The translations under genes were made by a program, and so were the position numbers. From positions 1 to 10,131 of the forward strand of contig JBMFOH010000044.1 of assembly GCA_049969715.1 (NCBI GenBank): a DNA stretch of 10,131 bases. The letters run 5' to 3'. Shown here in pieces: positions 1-10,131 of the stretch. Numbering within the stretch: position 1 is the stretch's first letter; the number at the start of each line of letters is the position of its first letter. The stretch is from JBMFOH01 sp049969715 [NCBI: bacterium]. Lineage in GTDB: Bacteria; DUMJ01. The notes below the pieces were generated by a model, which had not been told where the DNA came from, did no database searches, and worked only from the letters and a program-made list of their open reading frames with translations.

Positions 1-216
1 CCACATCGTCCTAGGCTTCATTTCACCCCTCCAAAAGGGTGGATGAATGATCCAAATGGTTTGGTTTATGTGGATGGTTTTTATCATCTATTCTATCAGT
101 ATCATCCTTTTTCTACTGTTTGGGGACCGATGCATTGGAGACATGCTATAAGCAGAGACTTAATAAATTGGACACACCTTAGAGAAACCCTAGTAATGGT
201 TTATATGGATTATTAG
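1..216 (+). pseudogene. GH32 beta-fructosidase (levanase / sucrose-6-phosphate hydrolase type), N-terminal fragment
   Basis: The frame is open from base 1, so the start lies outside the window, and it ends at TAG 214-216. Residues 1-60 read as the first blade of a GH32 five-bladed propeller. WMNDPNG (residues 14-20) carries the Asp nucleophile, followed by YHLFYQYHP and [17 protein letters not shown]32 enzymes cleave fructosyl bonds in sucrose, sucrose-6-phosphate, levan or inulin. After the W-T-H-L at residues 57-60 (codons to base 180) the expected continuation (P-I-A-L...) is missing. Instead about 11 unrelated residues are read through the antisense of the neighbouring NUDIX gene. Roughly 400 residues, including the acid/base Glu, are absent, so this copy cannot be active. 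The family call is confident; whether the break is a real deletion or an assembly joint is open. Confidence 0.85.
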
Positions 217-622
217 CTTCTGGAGGAATTACTAAATAGTCACCTTTTAAAACCCTCTCTACCAGCCACTTGCACCAAGGCTCTATTGGTTCTTTAAAGT
301 TTTCTATATCTTTTAACGATAAGTAAGCAACTCTATCTACTTCAAACCCATCAGGCTTAGGATTATCACTTAGAGGTCTGCAGAGAAATATAATTCCTAT
401 CCATCCCTTCTCCGGAAGATTCTGAATTCCTATAAGTCCTTTCACTTCAACATCAATATTACTTTCCTCTTTTGTCTCCCTTACAATTGCCTCTTCTGGA
501 TATTCATCTTCTTCTACTGTTCCCCATGGTATACTCCACTGTCCCTCTAAGGGATGGCCCTTTGCCTGCCTTACAAATAAAATCTTATCATCCTTTAGAA
601 GGATACTTCCTACACATATCAC
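179..622 (-). CDS. NUDIX hydrolase
   Basis: A 147-residue protein of normal NUDIX size. NUDIX enzymes hydrolyse nucleoside diphosphates linked to another group, often oxidised nucleotides, nucleotide sugars or ADP-ribose, using Mg2+. The NUDIX box runs from G34 to I56: G34-x5-E40-x7-R48-E49-x2-E52-E53-x-N55-I56. The metal-binding glutamates are present and Asn replaces the usual glycine of EExGU. The N-terminal strand ([19 protein letters not shown]) and the [10 protein letters not shown] segment are typical, with W33 where Gly is common (PGG). The start is GTG at 622, preceded at 8 bases by GAAGGA; no ATG is available in frame. It overlaps the end of the chemoreceptor-glycosyltransferase gene by GTGA. 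The substrate cannot be told. Its stop codon lies exactly at the joint with the GH32 fragment, so the native C-terminus may differ. Confidence 0.88.
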
Positions 623-2388
623 TTGACTAATCCTTCAATAACTCTTCTTCCAGCTTGTCCATACTCTTTAACCTTTTCTGGACTCTTAATGAAGAACTCT
701 ATTGCATTAGCCAATGCCTTAGTATCACCATAGCTTACTAATCTTCCATTTTCTCCATCCTTTACTAGATATCTAGAACCTATCGTATCAGTTGCAACTA
801 CAGGCTTCCTACTTGCCAAAGCCTCACATATAATCTTGGGAGGAACACCTTCCTTTTCAGATGTAAGGACAACTAGGTCTACAATACTCAAAAGTTTAGG
901 GATATCACTACGATAACCAAGGAAGCGTATTCTATCGCTTAGACCTTCTCTCTTTACAAGTTGCTTCAGCTCATTCTCCAGAGAACCATCACCAACTATA
1001 AGACATAAAAGGTTCCTATATTTAGGGAATAATATCTTCATCCCTTCAATCAAGAATCTATGACCTTTCACAGGCTCAAGTCTAGCTATAACCCCTATCA
1101 CGAATTCATTACTAAGTTCCAACTCGTTTCTTAAGGACTTTTTCTCTGCCTCAGAGATATTAGCCAGTTCTCTATCAAATTTATTCAGGTCTATTTCTAG
1201 ATTATATACACCTACCTGGGTCTCAGCTAACTTATCCTTTAATCTTGTAGCTATCTCCGCCAAATTACTTGCCATATCTACAAGTCTAGTATTAACACTC
1301 ATCTGTTGTTCTGCAGCAGAGGATATCTCCCTAGTTCCCTTGGTTATCTCACGACTAGACCTTACTGTGTTTTCAATCCTATTAGCTATATCCTGGATTC
1401 TATCGGCTATCACTCCGAATGTATTGGTTACCTCTGACAAAGCTCTTTCACCTTCTGCTACCTGACGATTACTAGAAGAGATAACTGCAATTGCCTTAGA
1501 CATCCTTTCAGAAAGTTCATTTATCATATTCTTGATCTCTTTGAGAAGGTCTTGAGTCTGATATGAAAGTTGTCTTACCTCGTTTGCCACTACAGCAAAG
1601 CCCCTACCATGTTCACCAGCATGGGCTGCTTCAATAGCAGCATTTAAAGCAAGAAGGTTTGTTTGTTCAGCTATACTAGAGATAACTCCTACTATCTTTC
1701 CTATCTCGTCTGTTACCCTATTGAGCTCATTTATCATTACCGCAGTCTGATCAGCTGCCTGCATAATCTCTTTCATCTGGTTTTCCATGCTATCTATCTT
1801 AGAGATTCCTTCTTGAACCAGTGTCTCGACACTTCTTGCTCCTTGATTTATCTCTTCAATATTCGAATTTAAACTATCTGTTTCTTTCGTAAGATTTTGA
1901 AGGGCAGCATTCACCTCTTCCATTGTATCTGAAGTCTCCCTAATAGTCTCGTTCAACTGCCTACTTGAGTTAAGAGTTTTCTCAGAGAGAGAATCTAATT
2001 CTTTTATAAGCTTATCTGTATTCTCTCTTAGAGAATTAAATACAGAAGAGACCTTGCTAATTATCCCATCTTCTTTCTCAGAGAGAGTCTCTCTAAAACC
2101 ACCTGAAGCTATCTTCTCAAGTTTATTTGCAAATTCTCTAAATCTTTTAACAAGTTCTCCTTCTTCTCTATAGAGCTCAGGCAAATTATAGAGAGGTCTT
2201 AAAAGGGCTCTAACAATTAAAATAGAAACGAGAAAGGCTCCTAAAACTATAGGTATCGAGACTACAAGATTTGTAATAAATCTTGGTAAAAGGAAAATAA
2301 ATAAAAATAAAACAGAAAGGACTATAACAAAATTTCTGTTTATCCTTACTAATAACTCATGTAAGGCATTCTCTTCTAACCTTCTCAT
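619..2388 (-). CDS. Fusion: membrane methyl-accepting chemotaxis protein joined to the C-terminal half of a GT4-type glycosyltransferase
   Basis: 589 residues. Two hydrophobic segments (about 19-36 and 40-60) form a membrane hairpin with almost no external loop, so there is no periplasmic sensor domain. A HAMP-like region (about 60-125, with RPL at 64-66) leads into an MCP signalling hairpin. Its tip is [15 protein letters not shown] (241-255) plus [14 protein letters not shown] (261-274), the CheA/CheW contact region. The descending arm ends near 388, about 18 heptads past the tip, so the MCP part looks complete. From about 391 the sequence is the nucleotide-sugar-binding half of a GT-B enzyme: [23 protein letters not shown] (R436, K441), VGDGS, then [13 protein letters not shown]. 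The acceptor-binding half is absent and the C-terminus stops early at AGRR. The acidic pair E513/E522 is spaced by 8 residues rather than the usual 7. The ATG at 2388 has no Shine-Dalgarno. Either a ligand-sensing fusion or a rearrangement product. Confidence 0.85.
631..636 (-). promoter_or_regulatory. Ribosome binding site of the NUDIX gene
   Basis: On the minus strand this reads GAAGGA, 8 bases before GTG 622-620. It lies inside the end of the upstream gene. It supports the GTG start, since the frame is closed a few codons upstream and offers no ATG. Confidence 0.5.
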
Positions 2389-2444: not shown

Positions 2445-3257
2445 CTATTCCAAGAACCTTCCTGTAATCTTTTCTAACTCCTCTAGACTTCTATATTCTA
2501 TGACAATCTTTCCCTTTTCTGGAGATCTTGGACGAATCCTCACCTTAGTCTCTAAATATGCCTGGAGTTTGTCTTCAATAGCCTTTATTTCAGGTATCTT
2601 ACCTATCCTATTATTTCTCCTTACTAACTCTTCAGTTTCTCTCACTGAAAGTTTCTCATCTATAATCTTCTGTGTTAGTTCTTTCTGAAGTAACTGCTCA
2701 TCAATCCCTAACAGAGCCCTAGCATGTCCATAAGTCAAATCCCCACTCTTTAACCTTTCTTGTACTTCCAAAGGAAGTTTTAATAGTCTCAACAGATTAG
2801 TTATTTCCGACCTACTTATGCCTAATCTTTCTGCCAATTCCTCATGCGTTACCCCATATCTTTCTATATAACCCTGAAAGGCATTAGCCTTATCTATAGG
2901 ATTTAGGTCTTCTCTTTGTATATTTTCTATAAGCGATATCTCATATGCTTCTCGTTCATTTACCTCTAATAGTATAGCAGGTAGTTTCTTAAGCCCTAAC
3001 AATCTCGCAGCTAGATATCTTCTCTCACCTGCAACTATCTCAAATCCATTATCTCTTGATCTTACCAGGATTGGCTGTAGTATACCTTTTTGCCTTATTG
3101 AATCTGCTAATTTTTCTATAGCCTGTTTATCTATAGTTTCTCTTGGCTGATTAGAATTTTGGTATATTCTTTCAATTTCAATCTCCTGAATTGTCCCTTC
3201 TTCCCTTGAAGGTATCAAGGCAGATAGCCCTCTCCCCAATCTCTTCTCACTGTTCAA
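2445..3257 (-). CDS. parB: Chromosome-partitioning protein ParB (Spo0J family)
   Basis: 270 residues, a usual size for chromosomal ParB. It opens with the RLGRGLSALIP signature (6-16), the ParA-contacting N-terminal region. The CTP-binding/ParB box follows, with the GERR motif at 77-80 and ENIQRE at 111-116. A helix-turn-helix about 138-160 (THEELAERLGISRSEI) reads parS, and a C-terminal dimerisation domain ends in LEKITGRFLE. ParB loads at parS, spreads as a CTP-dependent clamp and stimulates ParA to segregate origins. The listed start is TTG 3257-3255, inside the last codons of parA (11-base overlap). A stop lies just upstream in this frame, and a second TTG at 3239-3237 is the only other nearby choice. 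No strong Shine-Dalgarno favours either, so translational coupling to parA is likely. Confidence 0.95.
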   Translation of the reverse strand: MNSEKRLGRGLSALIPSREEGTIQEIEIERIYQNSNQPRETIDKQAIEKLADSIRQKGILQPILVRSRDNGFEIVAGERRYLAARLLGLKKLPAILLEVNEREAYEISLIENIQREDLNPIDKANAFQGYIERYGVTHEELAERLGISRSEITNLLRLLKLPLEVQERLKSGDLTYGHARALLGIDEQLLQKELTQKIIDEKLSVRETEELVRRNNRIGKIPEIKAIEDKLQAYLETKVRIRPRSPEKGKIVIEYRSLEELEKITGRFLE

Positions 3258-4023
3258 TCATTATCAACTCTTTTGCTAGTTCCCTATAGGCAATAGCCCC
3301 CGAAGAATTATCAGCATACTCGAGTATAGATTTTGAAAAACTAGGAGCCTCACTTAATCTAACATTTCTAGGAATTACTGTGTTAAATACCTTATCCTTG
3401 AAGAATCTTCTTGCGTCTTCTAATACCTGTTGAGCCAGGATAGTTCGGTTATACATAGTTAAAAGTACACCAAGGACATCTAAATGAGGATTCAGATTCT
3501 TCTTCACTAATTCGATGCTCTTTAATAACTGAGAGATACCTTCTAAGGCGTAGTATTCACACTGTAAAGGGATAAGTATATATTGCGAGGCAGACAATGC
3601 ATTTACAGTGAGGAGACCTAAAGATGGAGGACAATCAATAAGGACATAATCATACTCATTAGTTATTGAATCTAAAACCCTCTTAAGTCTTAACTCTCTT
3701 AAAAATGTTGATACCAATTCTATCTCTGCTCCAGCCAGATCTAAATTAGAGGGAATAAGATCGATATTATCTCTCACTGACCTATCACCATTCCTTAAAG
3801 GATATATAACATCTCTTGTAGATATCTCATATACTAATGCCTCATAGAGACTTGGCTTTAAGTTTCTCTCCTCGCTCACCCCACTAGTAGTATTTCCCTG
3901 AGGGTCATTATCTACAAGGAGTACCTTCTTACCATATTCTGCTAAGGCAAACCCCAAATTTATTACTGTAGTAGTCTTCCCTACGCCACCTTTTTGGTTA
4001 GCAACAGCCATTACCTTTCCCAT
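3247..4023 (-). CDS. parA: Chromosome-partitioning ATPase ParA (Soj family)
   Basis: 258 residues from ATG 4023. Deviant Walker A is KGGVGKTT (residues 11-18), the A' motif is DNDPQGN (38-44), and Walker B is VLIDCPPSLG (127-136). There is no N-terminal DNA-binding domain, so it is the short chromosomal Soj type. It cycles between ATP-bound, nucleoid-bound dimers and a ParB-released state, driving origin segregation. An in-frame ATG exists at 4035, but its start would abut the parS palindrome with no ribosome site. ATG 4023 has GGAG six bases upstream and gives the classic start MGKVMAVANQKGG. Its 3' end overlaps parB by 11 bases. Expression is probably autoregulated through parS in the leader (inference). 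Confidence 0.95.
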   Translation of the reverse strand: MGKVMAVANQKGGVGKTTTVINLGFALAEYGKKVLLVDNDPQGNTTSGVSEERNLKPSLYEALVYEISTRDVIYPLRNGDRSVRDNIDLIPSNLDLAGAEIELVSTFLRELRLKRVLDSITNEYDYVLIDCPPSLGLLTVNALSASQYILIPLQCEYYALEGISQLLKSIELVKKNLNPHLDVLGVLLTMYNRTILAQQVLEDARRFFKDKVFNTVIPRNVRLSEAPSFSKSILEYADNSSGAIAYRELAKELIMIEQ

Positions 4024-4029
4024 GCCTTT

Positions 4030-4033
4030 CTCC
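4030..4033 (-). promoter_or_regulatory. Ribosome binding site deciding the parA start
   Basis: On the minus strand GGAG is followed by six bases and then ATG 4023-4021. Choosing this start instead of ATG 4035 removes four residues and leaves parS wholly in the untranslated leader. Confidence 0.6.
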
Positions 4034-4035
4034 AT

Positions 4036-4051
4036 TGTTTCACGTGAAACA
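4036..4051. promoter_or_regulatory. parS centromere site
   Basis: TGTTTCACGTGAAACA is a perfect 16-bp palindrome and matches the bacterial chromosomal parS consensus TGTTNCACGTGAAACA. It sits 12 bases before the chosen parA start and downstream of the candidate parA -10, so ParB bound here could also repress parAB. It is the only copy seen in the window. Confidence 0.95.
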
Positions 4052-4116: not shown

Positions 4117-4139
4117 TTGATATTTTATAATAATATCAA
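4117..4139. repeat. Inverted repeat TTGATATT/AATATCAA over the hemerythrin promoter region
   Basis: Arms 4117-4124 and 4132-4139 are perfect 8-base reverse complements around a 7-base AT spacer that includes TATAAT (4126-4131). The left arm also begins with TTGATA, a fair -35, with ACTAAT 17 bases on (4140-4145) as a weak -10. The site could be an operator over the promoter of the hemerythrin gene, or simply AT-rich symmetry. Confidence 0.4.
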
Positions 4140-4155
4140 ACTAATAAAGATTATC

Positions 4156-4164
4156 AGGAGGAGG
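4156..4164 (+). promoter_or_regulatory. Strong ribosome binding site of the hemerythrin gene
   Basis: AGGAGGAGG lies 3 bases before ATG 4168 as a full run, so its left part has ideal spacing. It fixes the start at 4168 over the longer frame beginning TTG 4117. Confidence 0.75.
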
Positions 4165-4167
4165 AAT

Positions 4168-4570
4168 ATGGCTATAAACTGGAATAAAAATCTAGAGACC
4201 GGGATACCAACTATTGATTCTCAGCATAAAGAATTGTTTAAGAGGATAAATGAGGTGTTAGATTTTTCTAATAAGAGTAGAGAAACTATTAATGAGACAG
4301 TTAGATTTTTACAGAGTTATATAGTGAATCATTTTGGTACTGAGGAGAGGCTTATGAGTAGAGCAAATTACCCCGAATACTCTGTTCACAAAAATGAACA
4401 TGAAAGGTATACTAAGGAATTCAATGCCTTGAAGGACAAGATAGAAAAGGAAGGAATAGGGGTTAGCATATCAGTACAGATGAATCATCTATTGATTGAT
4501 TGATTGGTGGATAAATCACATAAATAAAGTAGATAGAAAGATGGCCGAGTTCATAAAGGATAAGATATAA
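4168..4570 (+). CDS. Bacteriohemerythrin, frame broken by a 4-base tandem repeat (off or phase-variable)
   Basis: Bacteriohemerythrins are small cytoplasmic four-helix proteins that bind O2 (or sense it) at a di-iron centre. From ATG 4168 the frame gives 111 residues with ligands H20, H55, E59 (HxxxE), H74 and H78, then stops at TGA 4501-4503. The tract (ATTG)4 at 4491-4506 causes this. Removing one unit restores W-W-I-N-H-I-N-K-V-D and a normal end at TAA 4568-4570. That makes 132 residues, the usual family length, with the last ligands H116 and D121. As written, the product lacks helix 4's two iron ligands and should not form a normal di-iron site. Either slipped-strand switching, a recent mutation, or a read/assembly error. 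A strong AGGAGG precedes it, and the arginase-like gene follows 12 bases after the restored stop, suggesting one operon. Confidence 0.85.
4491..4506 (+). repeat. Tetranucleotide tract (ATTG)4 inside the hemerythrin gene
   Basis: Four perfect ATTG units in tandem. Three units put the downstream coding sequence in frame with the start; four bring TGA 4501-4503 into frame. Units of 4 bases shift frame at each gain or loss, the layout of known slipped-strand phase-variable genes, although four copies is short. Confidence 0.9.
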
Positions 4571-4582
4571 ACAATTAAGGGG

Positions 4583-5260
4583 ATGGTAAATAATATTCCA
4601 CTCATTATACATTTTGATGACACATACTTTTACCAGCCTAGGTTAAGAAGACTATGCAATGAAATAGACCTAAGAGGTATAAGGGGGATAAGATACCTAT
4701 GTCCTATAGAAAGGCTGGAAGAATTGGACTCAAGGATTTCCTCTTTTAGAGGTTCTTTAGTATTCATAGGAAGTGGTGACTTTCATTATATAACCTATTT
4801 ATTTCTGAAACGCATTAAGGACTTATTTAACCTGGTGTTAATAGATAAACATCTCGATATTAAGAAAACATTTGGCGATTTCATCAGTTGTGGCTCGTGG
4901 GTGAATGAGGCGCTTAAGCTAAAAAATCTAAAAGAAATCTTATACATAGGGTCCCAGGAGGGGGACGAATTCTGGAGGCTTAAATCTCTAACAAGAGAAA
5001 GAACCCCTATATACATAAGTATAGATAAGGATATATTAGACCCCTCTTCTCTAGAGACCAATTGGGATCATGGGAACCTTACAGTTAGTTACCTTTTAGA
5101 TATTATCTCCTCTATACCTAAGGAGATAATTATAGGAGCTGACATATGTGGAGAACCAAGACTTGAACCTTTTAGCTCTAATATAGAAAGGAGCGAAGAG
5201 ATAAATCTTAAGATCCTTAATGCTCTTACTGCTCTAGAGGATAGAGAGATATCTGCCTGA
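4583..5260 (+). CDS. Arginase/agmatinase-superfamily (ureohydrolase fold) protein, short form
   Basis: 225 residues, clearly shorter than the roughly 290-320 of arginases and agmatinases. The dinuclear-metal motifs are recognisable: GSGDFH (63-68) for GGDHS, with His68; LIDKHLD (86-92) for DAHxD, with D88, H90 and D92; and ISIDKDILDP (145-154) for SxDxDxxDP, with D148 and D150. The segment GADICGEP (185-192) takes the place of the region with the substrate-guanidinium-binding Glu. The metal site thus looks intact, but the substrate pocket differs and arginine or agmatine should not be assumed. Other members act on formiminoglutamate, guanidino acids or acetyl-lysines (a looser relation). ATG 4583 directly abuts AAGGGG, a poor spacing, so translation may depend on the hemerythrin gene, whose restored stop is 12 bases upstream in the same frame. 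The 3' end overlaps the convergent URO-D-like gene by 27 bases. Confidence 0.8.
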   Translation: MVNNIPLIIHFDDTYFYQPRLRRLCNEIDLRGIRGIRYLCPIERLEELDSRISSFRGSLVFIGSGDFHYITYLFLKRIKDLFNLVLIDKHLDIKKTFGDFISCGSWVNEALKLKNLKEILYIGSQEGDEFWRLKSLTRERTPIYISIDKDILDPSSLETNWDHGNLTVSYLLDIISSIPKEIIIGADICGEPRLEPFSSNIERSEEINLKILNALTALEDREISA

Positions 5261-6394
5261 ATAGTTCCTTATCCAGCCAGTAAGTTTAGCCAGAAGTCTT
5301 GTATATTCTATAAAGTTCTGCCAGGATATATCTGGTGGAACCCCATGGTCACAGCTGGGTATGTATCCTCCATCCTCTAATAGAGGAGGAACAACCCTCA
5401 TAACTTCTTCCTCCATAACCTTTCCTCCTTTAGCTATAGCTCTTTTGTCTATGCCACCAATATAAGCCATTCTTTTACCGAATCTTTTCCTAAATTCTAC
5501 TATGTCATTTCCTGCAGCTACTTCTATTGGAGTGGTACAGTTAATCCCAAGTTCTATCCATAATGGAATTAGTTCACCTATATATCCATCAGAATCTATA
5601 GAAATCATCGGACATCCGCTCTTTTTGAGCTCAGGAACCCATTTTTCACATGCAGGAAATAGATATTCTCTTACCATCTTAGGAGATATCATACTGTGGG
5701 CTTTGTAAGCCATATCTTCTGAGAATACTACATAGTCTAGCGTTACTCTTTCTAGGATTGGTTTTAATACTTCTAAAACAAAATTAGCCCAAAAATCAAC
5801 CATCTCGTGGACAAAGTCTGGCTTTTCTATCATAAAGATACATAAGTTTTCTAGCCCACACCACTCTCTTAATTGCCAGAAGGGTCCATTTATACCTAGA
5901 CTTAAGACATAATCTCTATTCTGTAACGCTTTACACCTCTTTTCAAAATCCTCAGGAAATCTCCCTGAAGTCTTTGGGTTATAGCGTTTTTTCATCTCTT
6001 CCCAGTCCGAATATGTCTCTACTGGAAACTTATACCATTTCCTAGTTACAAAGTCCTTTGCCTCTCTTAGATAGGTATAGTCATACTGGTCTGATATTTC
6101 TACTATTGCTCCCATCCAGTCCTGGACTATGTAGTGCCCATCTTTATGTTCTAGTATTTTTTCTTCAAACTGTGGTATCATCTTAAATGAGACTCCAAGG
6201 TCTACTCTAGGTTTTGTTCTTTCTTCCTCTATACCAAGTATTTCTAATAAGGCAGAATAATAATTTTTCCCCTCTGGCAAGCCTTCTTCTCTCCATCTCT
6301 TCAGGGTTGATTCTCTTGGTCCCCCTGGCATTAGAGGAACCTTATCTGTCTTTCCAAAAGTTAGAGCCTCTATGAATCTCTCTCTAGGTGTCAT
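5234..6394 (-). CDS. Uroporphyrinogen decarboxylase (URO-D) superfamily protein, not HemE
   Basis: 386 residues, a TIM barrel. It begins MTPRERFIEALTFGKTDKVP, the usual opening of URO-D-superfamily proteins found outside haem synthesis, and has GGYIPSCDHGVPPDISWQN at 342-360. The HemE signature (RQAGRYLPEY) is absent and MPGGPREST (22-30) stands there, so HemE is unlikely. In MtaA/MtbA-type methyltransferases zinc is held by H-x-C and a later Cys; here the H-x-C site appears as D267-S-D269-G, while Cys348 sits near the later position. The chemistry is therefore unknown: methyl transfer, decarboxylation or something else. It is the last gene seen in the sugar operon, with AGGAGG upstream. Its start overlaps the oxidoreductase stop by ATGA, so the two are likely translationally coupled. 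It should be cytoplasmic, as no signal peptide is seen. Confidence 0.85.
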   Translation of the reverse strand: MTPRERFIEALTFGKTDKVPLMPGGPRESTLKRWREEGLPEGKNYYSALLEILGIEEERTKPRVDLGVSFKMIPQFEEKILEHKDGHYIVQDWMGAIVEISDQYDYTYLREAKDFVTRKWYKFPVETYSDWEEMKKRYNPKTSGRFPEDFEKRCKALQNRDYVLSLGINGPFWQLREWCGLENLCIFMIEKPDFVHEMVDFWANFVLEVLKPILERVTLDYVVFSEDMAYKAHSMISPKMVREYLFPACEKWVPELKKSGCPMISIDSDGYIGELIPLWIELGINCTTPIEVAAGNDIVEFRKRFGKRMAYIGGIDKRAIAKGGKVMEEEVMRVVPPLLEDGGYIPSCDHGVPPDISWQNFIEYTRLLAKLTGWIRNYSGRYLSIL

Positions 6395-7611
6395 AGTATA
6401 CCTCCTAGTAGGTCTCTAGTCTTAATAGCATTGCCACTAGCTATGGATTTATTGGCAGAGATTCCTATTATTATGGACATAGCCCCTGCCCTTGAGTCTG
6501 CCATATGTCCAAGGGGATCAGAGAGATTTTCTAGAAAGAGCATCCTTTGAAGCCTTTCATCTGAACCTCCATGACCTCCTGTAGCCTTCGGAATCTCATA
6601 GGTTATAATCTCATCCTTTCTATTAAATACTCTTACATACTGATTTGGTTCTTTAACAGAATGTCCACTGTGAAACTCCTCGGCTTCTACTCTTCCATCT
6701 GCTCCATTAATTGATATCCTCCATCCCTCGTATGGACTATATGCTATTAGAGAATATGTCAATATGGCTCCCTTTGAGTATTTGACATTTACACTCATAG
6801 TATCTTCTATATCTATCTCAGGGGAAAATATACACCTATCTCTATAGTATCCATCTATGTCCTCTGCATCGAAGTAAAACGCCTTCATAAATGGGTCCTT
6901 AGAGTAATCAACAAAGAATTCACAGGTATCCTTATACTTACAGGTTAGGCATCTCTCACCCCTTTTTTCTCTTGTTGGTCCGTAAAATCTTCTTGAGCCA
7001 AATGCATATACAATCTCTGGATCTTCTTCTAACCACCAATTTATTATATCAAAGTGGTGGGTAGCCTTATGAACTAATAATCCACCTGAATTTTCTTTTC
7101 TTCTATGCCATCTTCTAAAGTAATCTGCCCCATGTCTGGTATCTAAAAACCATTCAAAGTCTATGCTCAGAATTTTCCCTATGATCCCTTCCTTTAATAG
7201 CTCTTTTATCCTCGTGACATATGGGTTAAATCTATAGTTAAAGGTAACTATTATCTTCCTACCTGTTCTTCTCTCTGCTTCTAACATAGCCTTACACTTT
7301 TCTTCATCTATGGTCATAGGCTTCTCTACAATGACATCACAACCAGCATCCATAGCTCTTATGGCGTACTCATGATGGTATCTATCTATTGTTGTTACTA
7401 TTACATAGTCCGGATTAGTCTCTTTTATCATCTTATCGAAATCTTCAAATATAGGAACCCCTCCACAATGGTTACTAATATACTCTGCCCTTTTCCTGTT
7501 TATATCAAATACACCTACCAACTTAGCATAATCTCTAAATTTTTCGGTTATAGGAAGGGCATACATGTAGAATCCTCTGCTACTTGCACCTGCCAATGCA
7601 TATCTTTTCAT
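6391..7611 (-). CDS. Gfo/Idh/MocA family NAD(P)-dependent sugar oxidoreductase with a Cys4 cluster
   Basis: 406 residues. The Rossmann half opens with YALAGASSRG (4-12), then VGVFDINRKRA for the adenosine ribose, VIVTTIDRYHHEYAIRAMDAG, and the family hallmark VEKPMT (E96-K97-P98). The C-terminal alpha/beta half has GGLLVHKATHHFDIINWW (177-193), where H185 or H186 is the likely catalytic base. Family members oxidise or reduce a sugar or cyclitol carbon, often making a keto intermediate. Unusual within the domain is C221-x2-C224-x5-C230 plus C260, which could bind a structural metal; related oxidoreductases may share it. AAGGAGG precedes ATG 7611. It lies 14 bases after the alpha/beta hydrolase gene and overlaps the URO-D-like gene by 4 bases, so it belongs to one operon. 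The substrate is unknown, probably the sugar handled by the neighbouring isomerase. Confidence 0.92.
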   Translation of the reverse strand: MKRYALAGASSRGFYMYALPITEKFRDYAKLVGVFDINRKRAEYISNHCGGVPIFEDFDKMIKETNPDYVIVTTIDRYHHEYAIRAMDAGCDVIVEKPMTIDEEKCKAMLEAERRTGRKIIVTFNYRFNPYVTRIKELLKEGIIGKILSIDFEWFLDTRHGADYFRRWHRRKENSGGLLVHKATHHFDIINWWLEEDPEIVYAFGSRRFYGPTREKRGERCLTCKYKDTCEFFVDYSKDPFMKAFYFDAEDIDGYYRDRCIFSPEIDIEDTMSVNVKYSKGAILTYSLIAYSPYEGWRISINGADGRVEAEEFHSGHSVKEPNQYVRVFNRKDEIITYEIPKATGGHGGSDERLQRMLFLENLSDPLGHMADSRAGAMSIIIGISANKSIASGNAIKTRDLLGGIL

Positions 7612-7625
7612 CTATTTTCCTCCTT

Positions 7626-9614
7626 CTAGTACTTGTATACCTTTATTCCACCTAACTCCTCTATCTTTGCTACTTCTCCTCTAGCGTCTCTAGGATTAAC
7701 TATCATCACTTTTTTATCACCTATAGATAGTATAAGGTCTTCTATGTCGAAGTATTTGGCAATTCCATATATTTCTAACCTTGGGTCATACTTATAATAT
7801 TTAGAAAAGATGATATCCTCATAAGAATAGAGTAGGTCTTCTAGGTATACCTCTTCTATTTCCTTATTTATTACACTTGCAAATAGTGCATATATAGTGC
7901 TTATCCCTTTTCCAGCTATTGCAATATTTATATTAGGATTGGTGCCTTTTACATACTCGATAGCTCTTAATATATCAAAGACCCTTAATGCTGTTAAAGA
8001 GGTTCCAAGCATCATTAAGTCGAAATTTAATTTGTACTCTGTCCCGTAATATTCATAGAAACCGTAAGGATTTATGTCTCTACACTTTACAGCCCCTATA
8101 CCTCTAGGGTCAAACACAAAGACATCCCCTTCGGCTAGAAATCTTCTGACCAAGTCAGATTCCTTCTGTATGTCATTTGTGCCTTCATCAAAAAGGATTA
8201 TTGTACACTTTTTCCTATTTTCTCCTTCTATATAAATTCCTGCAGTAGCTATATCCTTCTCTGGGAACATAAAGACCTTCTTATAATTAAGTGTACTATT
8301 GAGGAAATTAAAACTCCCTTCTTCTATAACTCTTGGGTATAGAGGTTTATCATCCTGAGGAAGATTCAATATCTCTATCAGTTTCTCTCTTATCTTTTCT
8401 TTACCAGATATCCTTTTACAGTTTTTCTTATAGTACTCATAGTTTAATGAGCTAATATCCTTAGCAGAATCAAACTCAGCCAATACTTGCCCATAATTAG
8501 TGCATTTTAAAACTTCTTTCCTCTCTATATTTATACTTTCAGCTATATTGCTCGTTTCTTCCCCTTTTAGATATCTTACAAACCATTTCACCGCTTCCCT
8601 TCTCAGCTCATCGTTATAACTGTGTGTTCCTTTGGCTATGTATAGTTTTATATTCTCTTCCTTACCATATAACCTGTACATCTTTTTAGCCCTCTCGTAA
8701 GAATTAATTGTCCCTTCTATGCAGAAGAAATCAGAGTCAACCGACCCTATCATTACTGGTTTTGGTGCAAAACAAGATATGAAATCATCATAGTTTAGCC
8801 CCATAACTATAGCCTTAAATATATTCTGTTCACTATCATGAGCCTGACCTGTCTTCATATACTCTTCTCTAGATGTGATATACGTGCAAGGTACAGCTAC
8901 TTTTATCCTTGGCTCCAACAACATCATATAGGAGGACTGAGTTCCACCTCCAGAATTCCCAGTTAACCCTAGTCTTGTAGAATCAACTTCAGGCAATACT
9001 TCTAGAAAGTCTATGGCTCTTATTAGGTCCCATATGAAGTATCTGGCAATATTGGCACCTGCTAGTGTACATTGCAGCCCTGCATATGAATGTTCTATTG
9101 TTCCCCATCTTATTATGGTTCTCTTTAACTCTTTGTCGTAGTACTGCATCCTCTCCCCTTGACCGACTGGATCTACAGCAAGTACTATGAAACCATTATT
9201 AACCAATTCTATACAGACTTTCTGATACTCTGGACAACTCTTCGCCCACTCCCAGTGTCCACAAGCAAATAGAATAGCAGGAAGTTTTTTGTCTATGTCC
9301 TTAGGCATATAAAGATTAGCTGTTACATAAAACTTAGGAAGACTCTGATATATCACCTTCTTTATGATATAAGAGTCTTTTTCTATTACACCAGTATACA
9401 TTGGATTTAAGTCTGTCTTCTCTATATTTAAGCCGCCAATAGCGGTTATAAAATAATCCCTTATCTTTTCTCTCCTTTTTTCAAATTCTTCTATACTTTT
9501 AATACTACTCTTTTCTTCATCCTCCTTTTTAAAGAATTCAAAAGCTCTTCTTTTTACATATTCAGGTAACTGATTTTCTACATCATAATATCCATCTAAA
9601 AATGGCTTAAACAT
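7626..9614 (-). CDS. Two-lobed alpha/beta hydrolase, acetylxylan-esterase-like
   Basis: 662 residues, about twice a single alpha/beta hydrolase. The first lobe (about 85-350) has the strand LPAILFACGHWEW, then VLAVDPVGQGER (144-155), the nucleophile elbow G219-N-S221-G-G-G, an acid near D293 (GSVDSDFF) and H331 (KGTHSY). This is a complete Ser-Asp-His triad. The pattern resembles acetylxylan esterase/prolyl-oligopeptidase-like enzymes that remove acyl groups from carbohydrates. The second lobe (about 440-662) repeats the fold weakly: FVFDPRGIGA (499-508) and a degenerate elbow G568-K-G570-I-S572, where Gly replaces the nucleophile Ser, so it is probably structural. No signal peptide is seen, so it acts inside the cell, perhaps on imported oligosaccharides. 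AGGAGG lies 9 bases before ATG 9614. It is 13 bases after the isomerase gene. Confidence 0.82.
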   Translation of the reverse strand: MFKPFLDGYYDVENQLPEYVKRRAFEFFKKEDEEKSSIKSIEEFEKRREKIRDYFITAIGGLNIEKTDLNPMYTGVIEKDSYIIKKVIYQSLPKFYVTANLYMPKDIDKKLPAILFACGHWEWAKSCPEYQKVCIELVNNGFIVLAVDPVGQGERMQYYDKELKRTIIRWGTIEHSYAGLQCTLAGANIARYFIWDLIRAIDFLEVLPEVDSTRLGLTGNSGGGTQSSYMMLLEPRIKVAVPCTYITSREEYMKTGQAHDSEQNIFKAIVMGLNYDDFISCFAPKPVMIGSVDSDFFCIEGTINSYERAKKMYRLYGKEENIKLYIAKGTHSYNDELRREAVKWFVRYLKGEETSNIAESINIERKEVLKCTNYGQVLAEFDSAKDISSLNYEYYKKNCKRISGKEKIREKLIEILNLPQDDKPLYPRVIEEGSFNFLNSTLNYKKVFMFPEKDIATAGIYIEGENRKKCTIILFDEGTNDIQKESDLVRRFLAEGDVFVFDPRGIGAVKCRDINPYGFYEYYGTEYKLNFDLMMLGTSLTALRVFDILRAIEYVKGTNPNINIAIAGKGISTIYALFASVINKEIEEVYLEDLLYSYEDIIFSKYYKYDPRLEIYGIAKYFDIEDLILSIGDKKVMIVNPRDARGEVAKIEELGGIKVYKY

Positions 9615-9627
9615 ATTTAGAATCCTC

Positions 9628-10131
9628 CTAAATACCTAATCTCTTAGCTAAATCTTCTAAGAATTTCTTGGAATCTATATATGCTTTTTCTATATCAGGA
9701 ACATTTCCTATGTCTATAGCTACATAACCCTGATAATTATGCTTTTTTAGAGCTAGGAATATCCCTTCCCAATCTATATTCCCCTTTCCTAATGGTAAGT
9801 GTTCATTAACCTTTCCGTCATTATCAGACACATGGAGGTAAAAGATTCTATTCCTTAATTTTTCCACTGAAAGAGGTAAAATTTCTTTCTGAGCATTCTG
9901 ATGGCCTGTATCTAAAACTGCTCCGAAATTATCACTCTTTACATGATCCATCAATCTAAGAAGAGCATCTGTATTACTTATAATTTCCCCTACTCTTGGT
10001 TCTAGACAGAATTTTAATCCAGCTGATTTAGCAGTTTCACTGGCAAATCTAAAACTATCTACTAGCACATCCCATAGTACATCCCAACTAAAATTAGGGT
10101 CTATCTTTACTCTATAGTGTTTCCCATAACT
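9628..10131 (-). CDS. Sugar-phosphate isomerase/epimerase (xylose-isomerase-like TIM barrel), 5' end outside the window
   Basis: The frame is open to base 10131, so the N-terminal part is outside the window. About 168 residues are visible. A GTG at 10068 is internal, since coding sequence (including S-W-D-V-L-W-D-V) continues upstream of it. Typical C-terminal motifs of the AP-endonuclease-2/xylose-isomerase-like barrel are present in order: GLKFCLEPR (metal-ligand Glu), AVLDTGHQN (Asp and His), FYLHVSDNDGKVNEHLPLGKGNIDW (His, Asp and the G-x-G-x-x-D/W turn) and VAIDIG. Family members isomerise or epimerise sugars or cyclitols such as ketoses or inosose using a divalent metal. It is the first gene visible in the minus-strand operon, 13 bases ahead of the esterase-like gene. 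The specific substrate cannot be inferred. Confidence 0.9.
   Translation of the reverse strand, partial: SYGKHYRVKIDPNFSWDVLWDVLVDSFRFASETAKSAGLKFCLEPRVGEIISNTDALLRLMDHVKSDNFGAVLDTGHQNAQKEILPLSVEKLRNRIFYLHVSDNDGKVNEHLPLGKGNIDWEGIFLALKKHNYQGYVAIDIGNVPDIEKAYIDSKKFLEDLAKRLGI

What the first reader, a model, noticed from the sequence alone, without database searches (positions are those of the whole stretch)
619..2388. Chemoreceptor fused to half a glycosyltransferase
One open frame joins a complete MCP signalling hairpin (to about residue 388) to only the nucleotide-sugar-binding half of a GT-B, GT4-like enzyme (from about 391), with no acceptor-binding half. The protein has no periplasmic sensor. 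A nucleotide-sugar-binding Rossmann lobe on the far end of an MCP could be a cytoplasmic ligand sensor feeding CheA, which would be a new receptor design. The E-x8-E spacing (E513/E522) instead of E-x7-E suggests catalysis is lost or altered, consistent with a binding role.
Basis: partly seen in the sequence, partly recalled or inferred. Interest (0 to 1): 0.75.

Follow-up and report, generated by a model that had tools for sequence, protein, structure and literature searches.

The report
Chemoreceptor carrying half a glycosyltransferase
A bacterial movement-sensor protein here carries, at its inner end, the cleanly cut sugar-nucleotide-binding half of a glycosyltransferase; it may be a new kind of internal sensor, but it is a single case next to a broken gene, so it could also be a one-off rearrangement or an assembly error.

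Summary
One 589-aa minus-strand frame (619-2388) joins a membrane-anchored chemoreceptor (MCPsignal 192-364) to the donor-binding lobe of a GT4 glycosyltransferase (419-582). The lobe is thus cut at its domain limits at both ends. R436, K441, E513 and E522 are kept; the 8-residue spacing between the glutamates occurs in none of 49 comparison lobes. The lobe is predicted to fold alone (pLDDT 94.3), and its codon usage fits the parAB-MCP side of the window better than the other genes.

A sensor after the MCP hairpin is a known design (at least 17 domain types in one paper), so this would be a new input domain, not a new receptor design. Against a functional reading: no listed match covered both halves in samples of 400, 185 and 398 genomes; a GH32 gene at the window's left edge is cut after 57 of 307 profile positions; the joint lies 1.2 kb from that edge. 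Odds: cytoplasmic nucleotide-sugar sensor 0.35, private rearrangement 0.32, assembly chimera 0.22, enzyme half or platform 0.08.

The parts
619..2388 (-). Fusion gene, 589 aa: membrane-anchored MCP hairpin + GT4 donor lobe
   Evidence: single open frame; Pfam MCPsignal and Glycos_transf_1
2212..2331 (-). Two transmembrane-like helices (residues about 20-35 and 41-59) with a loop of about 5 residues; no periplasmic sensor
   Evidence: hydropathy; loop length by eye
1222..2070 (-). Predicted antiparallel helical hairpin (residues 107-256 and 262-389), tip near 257-261
   Evidence: single-sequence AlphaFold2, low overall confidence (mean pLDDT 54.9; 23 of the 29 ten-residue blocks between 101 and 390 at 60-81, the rest lower)
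1297..1815 (-). MCPsignal domain (residues 192-364) with the usual tip sequence [34 protein letters not shown]
   Evidence: Pfam; sequence
1195..1227 (-). Joint between MCP end and GT4 linker (residues 388-398)
   Evidence: alignment with GT4 linkers; MCP relatives
643..1134 (-). GT4 donor-binding (C-terminal) lobe, residues 419-582
   Evidence: Pfam PF00534 E 3.7e-35; AlphaFold2 of residues 389-589 with an alignment of 18, pLDDT 94.3, pTM 0.90; PDB fold matches
1066..1083 (-). R436 and K441, conserved positions (R in 35 of 49, K in 48 of 49 comparison lobes); donor-site role recalled
823..852 (-). E513 and E522 with 8 residues between them instead of 7
179..622 (-). NUDIX hydrolase gene (GTG start) overlapping the stop of the fusion by 4 bases (GTGA); candidate co-translated partner
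2445..3257 (-). parB, upstream neighbour
   Evidence: Pfam ParB_N, HTH_ParB, ParB_C
3247..4035 (-). parA, upstream neighbour
   Evidence: tblastn matches to ParA-type genes
1..189 (+). N-terminal fragment of a GH32 gene (frame open at the window's edge, stop at 214-216), cut where it meets the 3' end of the NUDIX gene; sign of a broken joint close by
   Evidence: Pfam Glyco_hydro_32N E 5.2e-28, residues 7-63, profile positions 1-57 of 307; frame

Best explanation
The gene encodes a chemoreceptor anchored in the membrane by a bare helical hairpin, whose input is cytoplasmic: an isolated GT4 donor lobe hung on the end of the returning arm of the hairpin, which lies on the membrane side of the receptor. 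The lobe has lost what makes it an enzyme (acceptor lobe, C-terminal tail) and kept the residues of the nucleotide-sugar pocket. It would bind a nucleotide or nucleotide-sugar, and the change at the base of the hairpin would be passed to CheA/CheW at the tip. Shown: the frame, the two domains, the missing lobe and tail, the kept residues, a confident predicted fold of the lobe. Inferred: that the gene is intact in the cell, that the lobe binds a nucleotide-sugar, that binding signals, and that the NUDIX gene has to do with the ligand.
For: Both domains are strong. The lobe is cut at its domain limits at both ends: 42 of 42 comparison frames with a closed 5' end carry 191-301 residues before the lobe (counted from the preceding stop) and 45 of 45 with a closed 3' end carry 16 or more after it, against 4 here (7 of 55 distinct frames dropped before the count as partial). 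R436, K441, E513, E522 kept. No stop or frameshift; 121 bits to PF00534, 165 bits to my own lobe profile. AlphaFold2 of the lobe: pLDDT 94.3, pTM 0.90; among the best PDB matches, after 7mi0 (Z 28.2) and 2jjm (Z 27.9), are GT4s with UDP, UDP-glucose or UMP: 4xsu, 4xsr, 3mbo, 5d00 (Z 26.7-27.8, rmsd 1.8-1.9, 185-193 aligned). Isolated GT-B C domains have been solved (2bfw; 5i45). Codon usage: lobe plus NUDIX does not differ from MCP plus parAB (z -0.37) and differs little from axe+gfo+uroD (z 1.67); the lobe alone is nearer to MCP plus parAB (z 1.59) than to axe+gfo+uroD (z 3.86). C-terminal sensors on MCPs are known (PMC7390727, passages; CZB in L032 and L036).
Against: A single case: no listed match covers both halves in the samples of 400, 185 and 398 genomes (E limits 1e-25, 1e-25, 1e-30; mostly only the best 3 to 7 first-look candidates per genome were scored); in 0 of 4221 plasmid records with a match does one place cover 80% of the query; none of the 112 fetched loci matches both halves. 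The 8-residue E-E spacing is unique among the lobes compared. The lobe's codon usage alone deviates from the rest of the window (z 2.95, 2 of 300 shuffles reach it, one of 11 segments tested). The MCP also lacks its usual short tail. A GH32 gene is cut 1 kb away and the hemerythrin gene at 4117 is broken. No ligand or signalling was tested.
Confidence: 0.35

Rival explanations
1. Private rearrangement: in this strain DNA was lost or shuffled so that an MCP gene runs into the remnant of a GT4 gene. The MCP may still work as a receptor or as an unregulated array member; the lobe is a folded passenger.
For: GH32 gene cut near window base 189, at the end of the NUDIX gene; hemerythrin gene broken at a 4-base tandem repeat (by eye); the MCP's own short tail is missing too; no same fusion in what was searched; one-residue insertion between E513 and E522 seen in no other lobe compared.
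Against: Needs two separate cuts, both falling at the edges of one folding domain; the lobe shows no stop or frameshift and scores well against the family profile; the GTGA overlap with the NUDIX gene looks like an ordinary operon joint.
Confidence: 0.32
2. Assembly chimera: the contig end was put together from pieces of different genomes or places (MCP, GT4-NUDIX, GH32).
For: The joint lies 1.2 kb, and the cut GH32 gene 0.2 kb, from the window's left end; frames run off both window ends, so the window may be a whole short contig; no whole genome is held for it.
Against: Up to three joints within about 1.1 kb would be needed (MCP|GT, GT|NUDIX, NUDIX|GH32), the first in frame and the first two at domain limits; none of the 8 repeats listed for 1-2600 covers a joint; codon usage of GT+NUDIX agrees with MCP+parAB.
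Confidence: 0.22
3. The lobe is not a sensor: it is half of a split glycosyltransferase that works with a separate acceptor lobe, or it serves as a binding platform on the receptor array.
For: Split GT-B enzymes exist (Alg13/Alg14, recalled, from no call); donor residues are kept.
Against: No acceptor lobe found in the window; the tail after the lobe is gone too; E-x8-E.
Confidence: 0.08

Closest known systems
Chemoreceptors with a ligand-binding domain C-terminal to the signalling domain (CZB type, as in L032 and L036)
   Same: Sensor placed after the MCP hairpin, cytoplasmic; CZB follows MCPsignal in L032 and L036; at least 17 C-terminal LBD types in Pfam according to PMC7390727 (passages)
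   Different: The domain is a GT4 donor lobe; I could not see the list of the 17 types (in a supplement I could not open), so I cannot exclude that a glycosyltransferase domain is among them
GT4 glycosyltransferases of the HepE/BshA/PglA kind
   Same: Donor lobe sequence and predicted fold (4xsu Z 27.8, rmsd 1.8, 193 aligned, 32% identity; sequence matches), R, K and both glutamates
   Different: No acceptor lobe, no C-terminal tail, E-x8-E, fused to an MCP
Glycosyltransferases reported to link metabolism or stress to cell shape or size (OpgH, UgtP, OtsA)
   Same: A sugar-transferase used to report the cell's state (PMC3723540, PMC5889556, PMC5685639: search listing and start of abstract only)
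   Different: Those papers concern whole enzymes acting on cell size or form, not chemoreceptors

Membership tests
Methyl-accepting chemotaxis proteins | MCPsignal domain above its Pfam cut-off | tested here: met
   143.2 bits against a cut-off of 34.6
Methyl-accepting chemotaxis proteins | Long antiparallel helical hairpin with conserved tip | tested here: met
   Two helices 107-256 and 262-389 predicted (single sequence, low overall confidence); usual tip sequence
Methyl-accepting chemotaxis proteins | HAMP domain between membrane and hairpin (usual, not universal) | tested here: inconclusive
   No HAMP match at E up to 1 in residues 1-110
Methyl-accepting chemotaxis proteins | Couples to CheA and CheW | not testable with these tools
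   none of the window genes scanned is a che gene; no genome held
Chemoreceptors with C-terminal ligand-binding domain | Folded domain after the hairpin, in the cytoplasm | tested here: met
   GT4 lobe 419-582 follows a hairpin ending about 389; predicted fold pLDDT 94.3; cytoplasmic place inferred from two membrane helices
Chemoreceptors with C-terminal ligand-binding domain | The domain binds a ligand that changes signalling | not testable with these tools
   needs binding and kinase assays
GT4 glycosyltransferases (GT-B) | Donor-binding C-terminal lobe with R..K and E-x7-E | tested here: inconclusive
   Lobe, R436, K441, E513, E522 present, but 8 residues between the glutamates; 48 of 49 comparison lobes have 7
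GT4 glycosyltransferases (GT-B) | Acceptor-binding N-terminal lobe | tested here: not met
   None in the frame or window; 42 of 42 comparison frames with a closed 5' end have 191-301 residues there
GT4 glycosyltransferases (GT-B) | C-terminal tail after the donor lobe | tested here: not met
   4 residues against 16 or more in 45 of 45 with a closed 3' end

The most novel reading that the evidence does not exclude
A chemoreceptor class whose input is a glycosyltransferase donor lobe stripped of its partner lobe and tail: the cell steers by its own nucleotide-sugar pool, with a NUDIX hydrolase made from the same message that may remove the ligand.
Probability: 0.28. Interest if true: 0.68.

Novelty: new variant of a known kind. 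Interest (0 to 1): 0.42.

Why it matters
If real, it shows a sugar-transferase donor lobe turned into a pure input domain of a chemoreceptor and would tie motility directly to nucleotide-sugar levels. It also gives a compact, testable protein: the lobe can be expressed alone. If it is a rearrangement or chimera, it is a useful warning that domain-precise fusions can be accidents.

Tried and rejected
Window ParB is at most 49% identical to any listed match in 61 genomes of the phylum of G002 and in 61 of the phylum of G001, ParA at most 58% in the loci taken from them. The esterase-like protein 7626-9614 has no match in 185 genomes of the phylum of G002, and its best-scoring match in 251 of the phylum of G001 is 43% identical over residues 2-483.

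Same fusion elsewhere: the genome-contig scan gave 5 loci that match one half each. Viral contigs gave no relative of the whole protein or of the GT part alone; these scans need exact short peptides and find close relatives only. With an alignment, 12 viral loci with GT4-like genes were found; none of them has an MCP match. Phylum samples of G001 (400), G002 (185), G003 (398) gave no listed match over both halves. Some MCP matches run a little way into the GT part: to residue 457 and 443 and 437 in frames with stops inside, to 425 in a frame without, to 448 and 436 in plasmids (20 of 4221 records listed). They cover at most the start of the lobe (427 on) and I do not count them as fusions. Mostly only 3 to 7 candidates per genome were scored, so a miss is possible.

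Catalysis as a transferase: thought unlikely, because acceptor lobe and tail are gone. Hidden acceptor lobe in another frame: not found (56 acceptor lobes used; best E 0.004 over 22 residues, which lie in the donor lobe itself; next 0.007 in the Gfo/Idh gene; the rest 0.05 and above, one 10-kb window as database). The first regular expression for the E-E spacing picked wrong residues in many rows; the counts used are from the alignment. The comparison set was fetched because it resembles GT4 lobes and is mostly from one phylum. The full-length structure was run without an alignment and is poor outside the hairpin. Alignment A2 mixed MCP and GT rows and was not used.

In print: searches returned no paper; the listings (titles and abstract starts) show none about an MCP-glycosyltransferase fusion; I did not read those papers, except passages of PMC7390727, whose list of 17 C-terminal domain types is in a supplement I could not open.

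Full report
What is there. The frame 619-2388 lies on the minus strand and encodes 589 residues. Pfam finds MCPsignal at 192-364 (E 9.7e-42) and Glycos_transf_1 at 419-582 (E 3.7e-35). The N-terminus has two hydrophobic stretches, about 20-35 and 41-59, with some 5 residues between them by eye, so there is no periplasmic domain; no HAMP domain is recognised in residues 1-110 at E up to 1. A single-sequence model shows two long helices, 107-256 and 262-389, with the tip near 257-261; the returning arm of 128 residues is about 18 heptads. The model is weak overall (mean pLDDT 54.9), so only the hairpin should be taken from it. The short tail that follows the hairpin in other MCPs is absent: 13 of 13 MCP frames whose match reaches residue 383 run on for 17-127 residues, the longest because of a CZB domain (L032).

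What is missing from the enzyme. The glycosyltransferase part begins in the interdomain linker of GT4 enzymes (residues about 392-400) and ends right after the last helix of the donor lobe. From the loci in hand I collected GT4-like frames: 61, of which 55 distinct, 7 of these dropped as partial matches. Of the rest, 42 of 42 with a closed 5' end have 191-301 residues before the lobe (counted from the preceding stop codon) and 45 of 45 with a closed 3' end have 16 or more after it; the window has 4 after it. So both the acceptor lobe and the tail after the donor lobe are gone (that this tail packs on the acceptor lobe in GT-B enzymes is recalled). No acceptor lobe was found elsewhere in the window.

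State of the lobe. The position of K441 is K in 48 of 49 comparison lobes, that of R436 is R in 35 of 49, that of E513 is E or D in 47 of 49, that of E522 is E in 42 of 49. That these are donor-site residues is recalled knowledge of GT4 enzymes. The spacing between the two glutamates is 8 here, 7 in 48 of 49 and 11 in one, and none of the 17 other rows of alignment A3 has the extra residue. AlphaFold2 of residues 389-589 with 18 sequences gives pLDDT 94.3 and pTM 0.90. Its best solved relatives are GT-B enzymes of the GT4 kind, led by 7mi0 (Z 28.2) and 2jjm (Z 27.9); HepE with UDP and glucose, 4xsu, has Z 27.8, rmsd 1.8, 193 aligned, 32% identity (rows within 1 of each other are tied). Isolated GT-B C domains have been crystallised: 2bfw and 5i45. 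Matches to human receptor structures in the same lists (5ws3 and 6hlp; 6hlo, 6me4, 6tpk) come, I recall, from a glycogen-synthase C domain used as a fusion partner; that too speaks for such a lobe folding alone.

Surroundings. Upstream are parB and parA with a perfect parS site in front of parA. Downstream a NUDIX gene overlaps the stop codon by 4 bases. Its substrate cannot be told: the solved relatives are a mixed set of NUDIX hydrolases. On the plus strand a frame open at the window's left edge matches the first 57 of 307 positions of the GH32 N-terminal domain (about bases 19-189) and then stops at 214-216, where it overlaps the end of the NUDIX gene: a cut gene. The hemerythrin gene at 4117 reaches position 105 of a 129-position family profile and stops inside an ATTG tandem repeat, while what looks like its end continues in another frame (by eye). 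Both point to disturbance or error in this stretch.

Is it one genome? Codon usage of GT lobe plus NUDIX does not differ from MCP plus parAB (z -0.37) and differs weakly from the three genes axe, gfo and uroD (z 1.67). MCP plus parAB differs from those three (z 4.44; MCP alone 2.47, parAB alone 3.06). The lobe alone deviates from the rest of the window (z 2.95, 2 of 300 shuffles; one of 11 segments), but it is nearer to MCP plus parAB (z 1.59) than to axe, gfo and uroD (z 3.86). I read this as mild support for one genome, no more. None of the 8 repeats listed for bases 1-2600 covers a joint.

Relatives. No whole genome is held for the window. The genome-contig scan returned 5 loci, each matching one half. 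Samples of 400 genomes (phylum of G001, reached through an Anaerolineaceae locus), 185 (phylum of G002, through a Fretibacterium locus) and 398 (phylum of G003, through a Chromohalobacter locus) gave no listed match over both halves, with the limits that matches were listed only to E 1e-25, 1e-25 and 1e-30 and that mostly 3 to 7 candidates per genome were scored. Of 4221 plasmid records with a match, in none does one place cover 80% of the query. Of 112 fetched loci, 41 match the MCP half, 48 the GT half and none both. None of these is close enough to be the direct ancestor of either half.

How it would work. Receptors with a sensor after the hairpin are known: a survey speaks of at least 17 kinds of C-terminal ligand-binding domain, CZB being by far the commonest (PMC7390727, passages), and two fetched loci, L032 and L036, have CZB there. 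In that arrangement the sensor sits at the base of the hairpin near the membrane (inferred). A lobe that keeps a nucleotide-sugar pocket and has shed the enzyme's other parts fits such an input. Whole glycosyltransferases that report the cell's state have been described (OpgH, UgtP, OtsA: PMC3723540, PMC5889556, PMC5685639, listing and abstract start only). The domain-precise trimming at both ends is the main reason why I prefer a functional module to a passenger; the cut GH32 gene, the lack of a second case and the place near the window's end are why I do not go above 0.35.

Verdict. A real and unusual reading frame; as a design, a new variant of receptors with C-terminal sensors; function unproven; rearrangement and chimera together remain more likely than the sensor.

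Noticed in passing
window 1-216 (+): Start of a GH32 (invertase/levanase-type) gene cut after profile position 57 of 307, overlapping the 3' end of the convergent NUDIX gene.
   Followed up: partly
window 4117-4503 (+): Bacteriohemerythrin gene stops early inside a 4-base (ATTG) tandem repeat; what looks like its end continues in another frame (by eye). Could be a slippage (phase-variable) site, decay or error.
   Followed up: partly
window 4036-4051: Perfect parS palindrome TGTTTCACGTGAAACA directly in front of parA (0.01 matches expected by chance with up to 3 mismatches): looks like a chromosome-type parABS system.
   Followed up: yes
L032 1123-2631, L036 1177-2610: Chemoreceptors with a CZB zinc-binding domain after the hairpin. 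In L032 and L037 a second receptor-like frame lies just upstream, by eye also in L036.
   Followed up: partly
window 5234-10131 (-): Run of sugar-catabolism-like genes: MtaA/CmuA-like protein, Gfo/Idh-type dehydrogenase, esterase-like protein of 662 aa, sugar-isomerase-like TIM barrel; codon usage of the first three differs from MCP+parAB (z 4.44).
   Followed up: partly
G005, G008, G010, G012 (L019, L020, L017, L018): Two ParB-like genes on either side of one ParA in four genomes of the phylum of G002; in G005 and G008 a chemoreceptor gene lies some 6-8 kb away.
   Followed up: no
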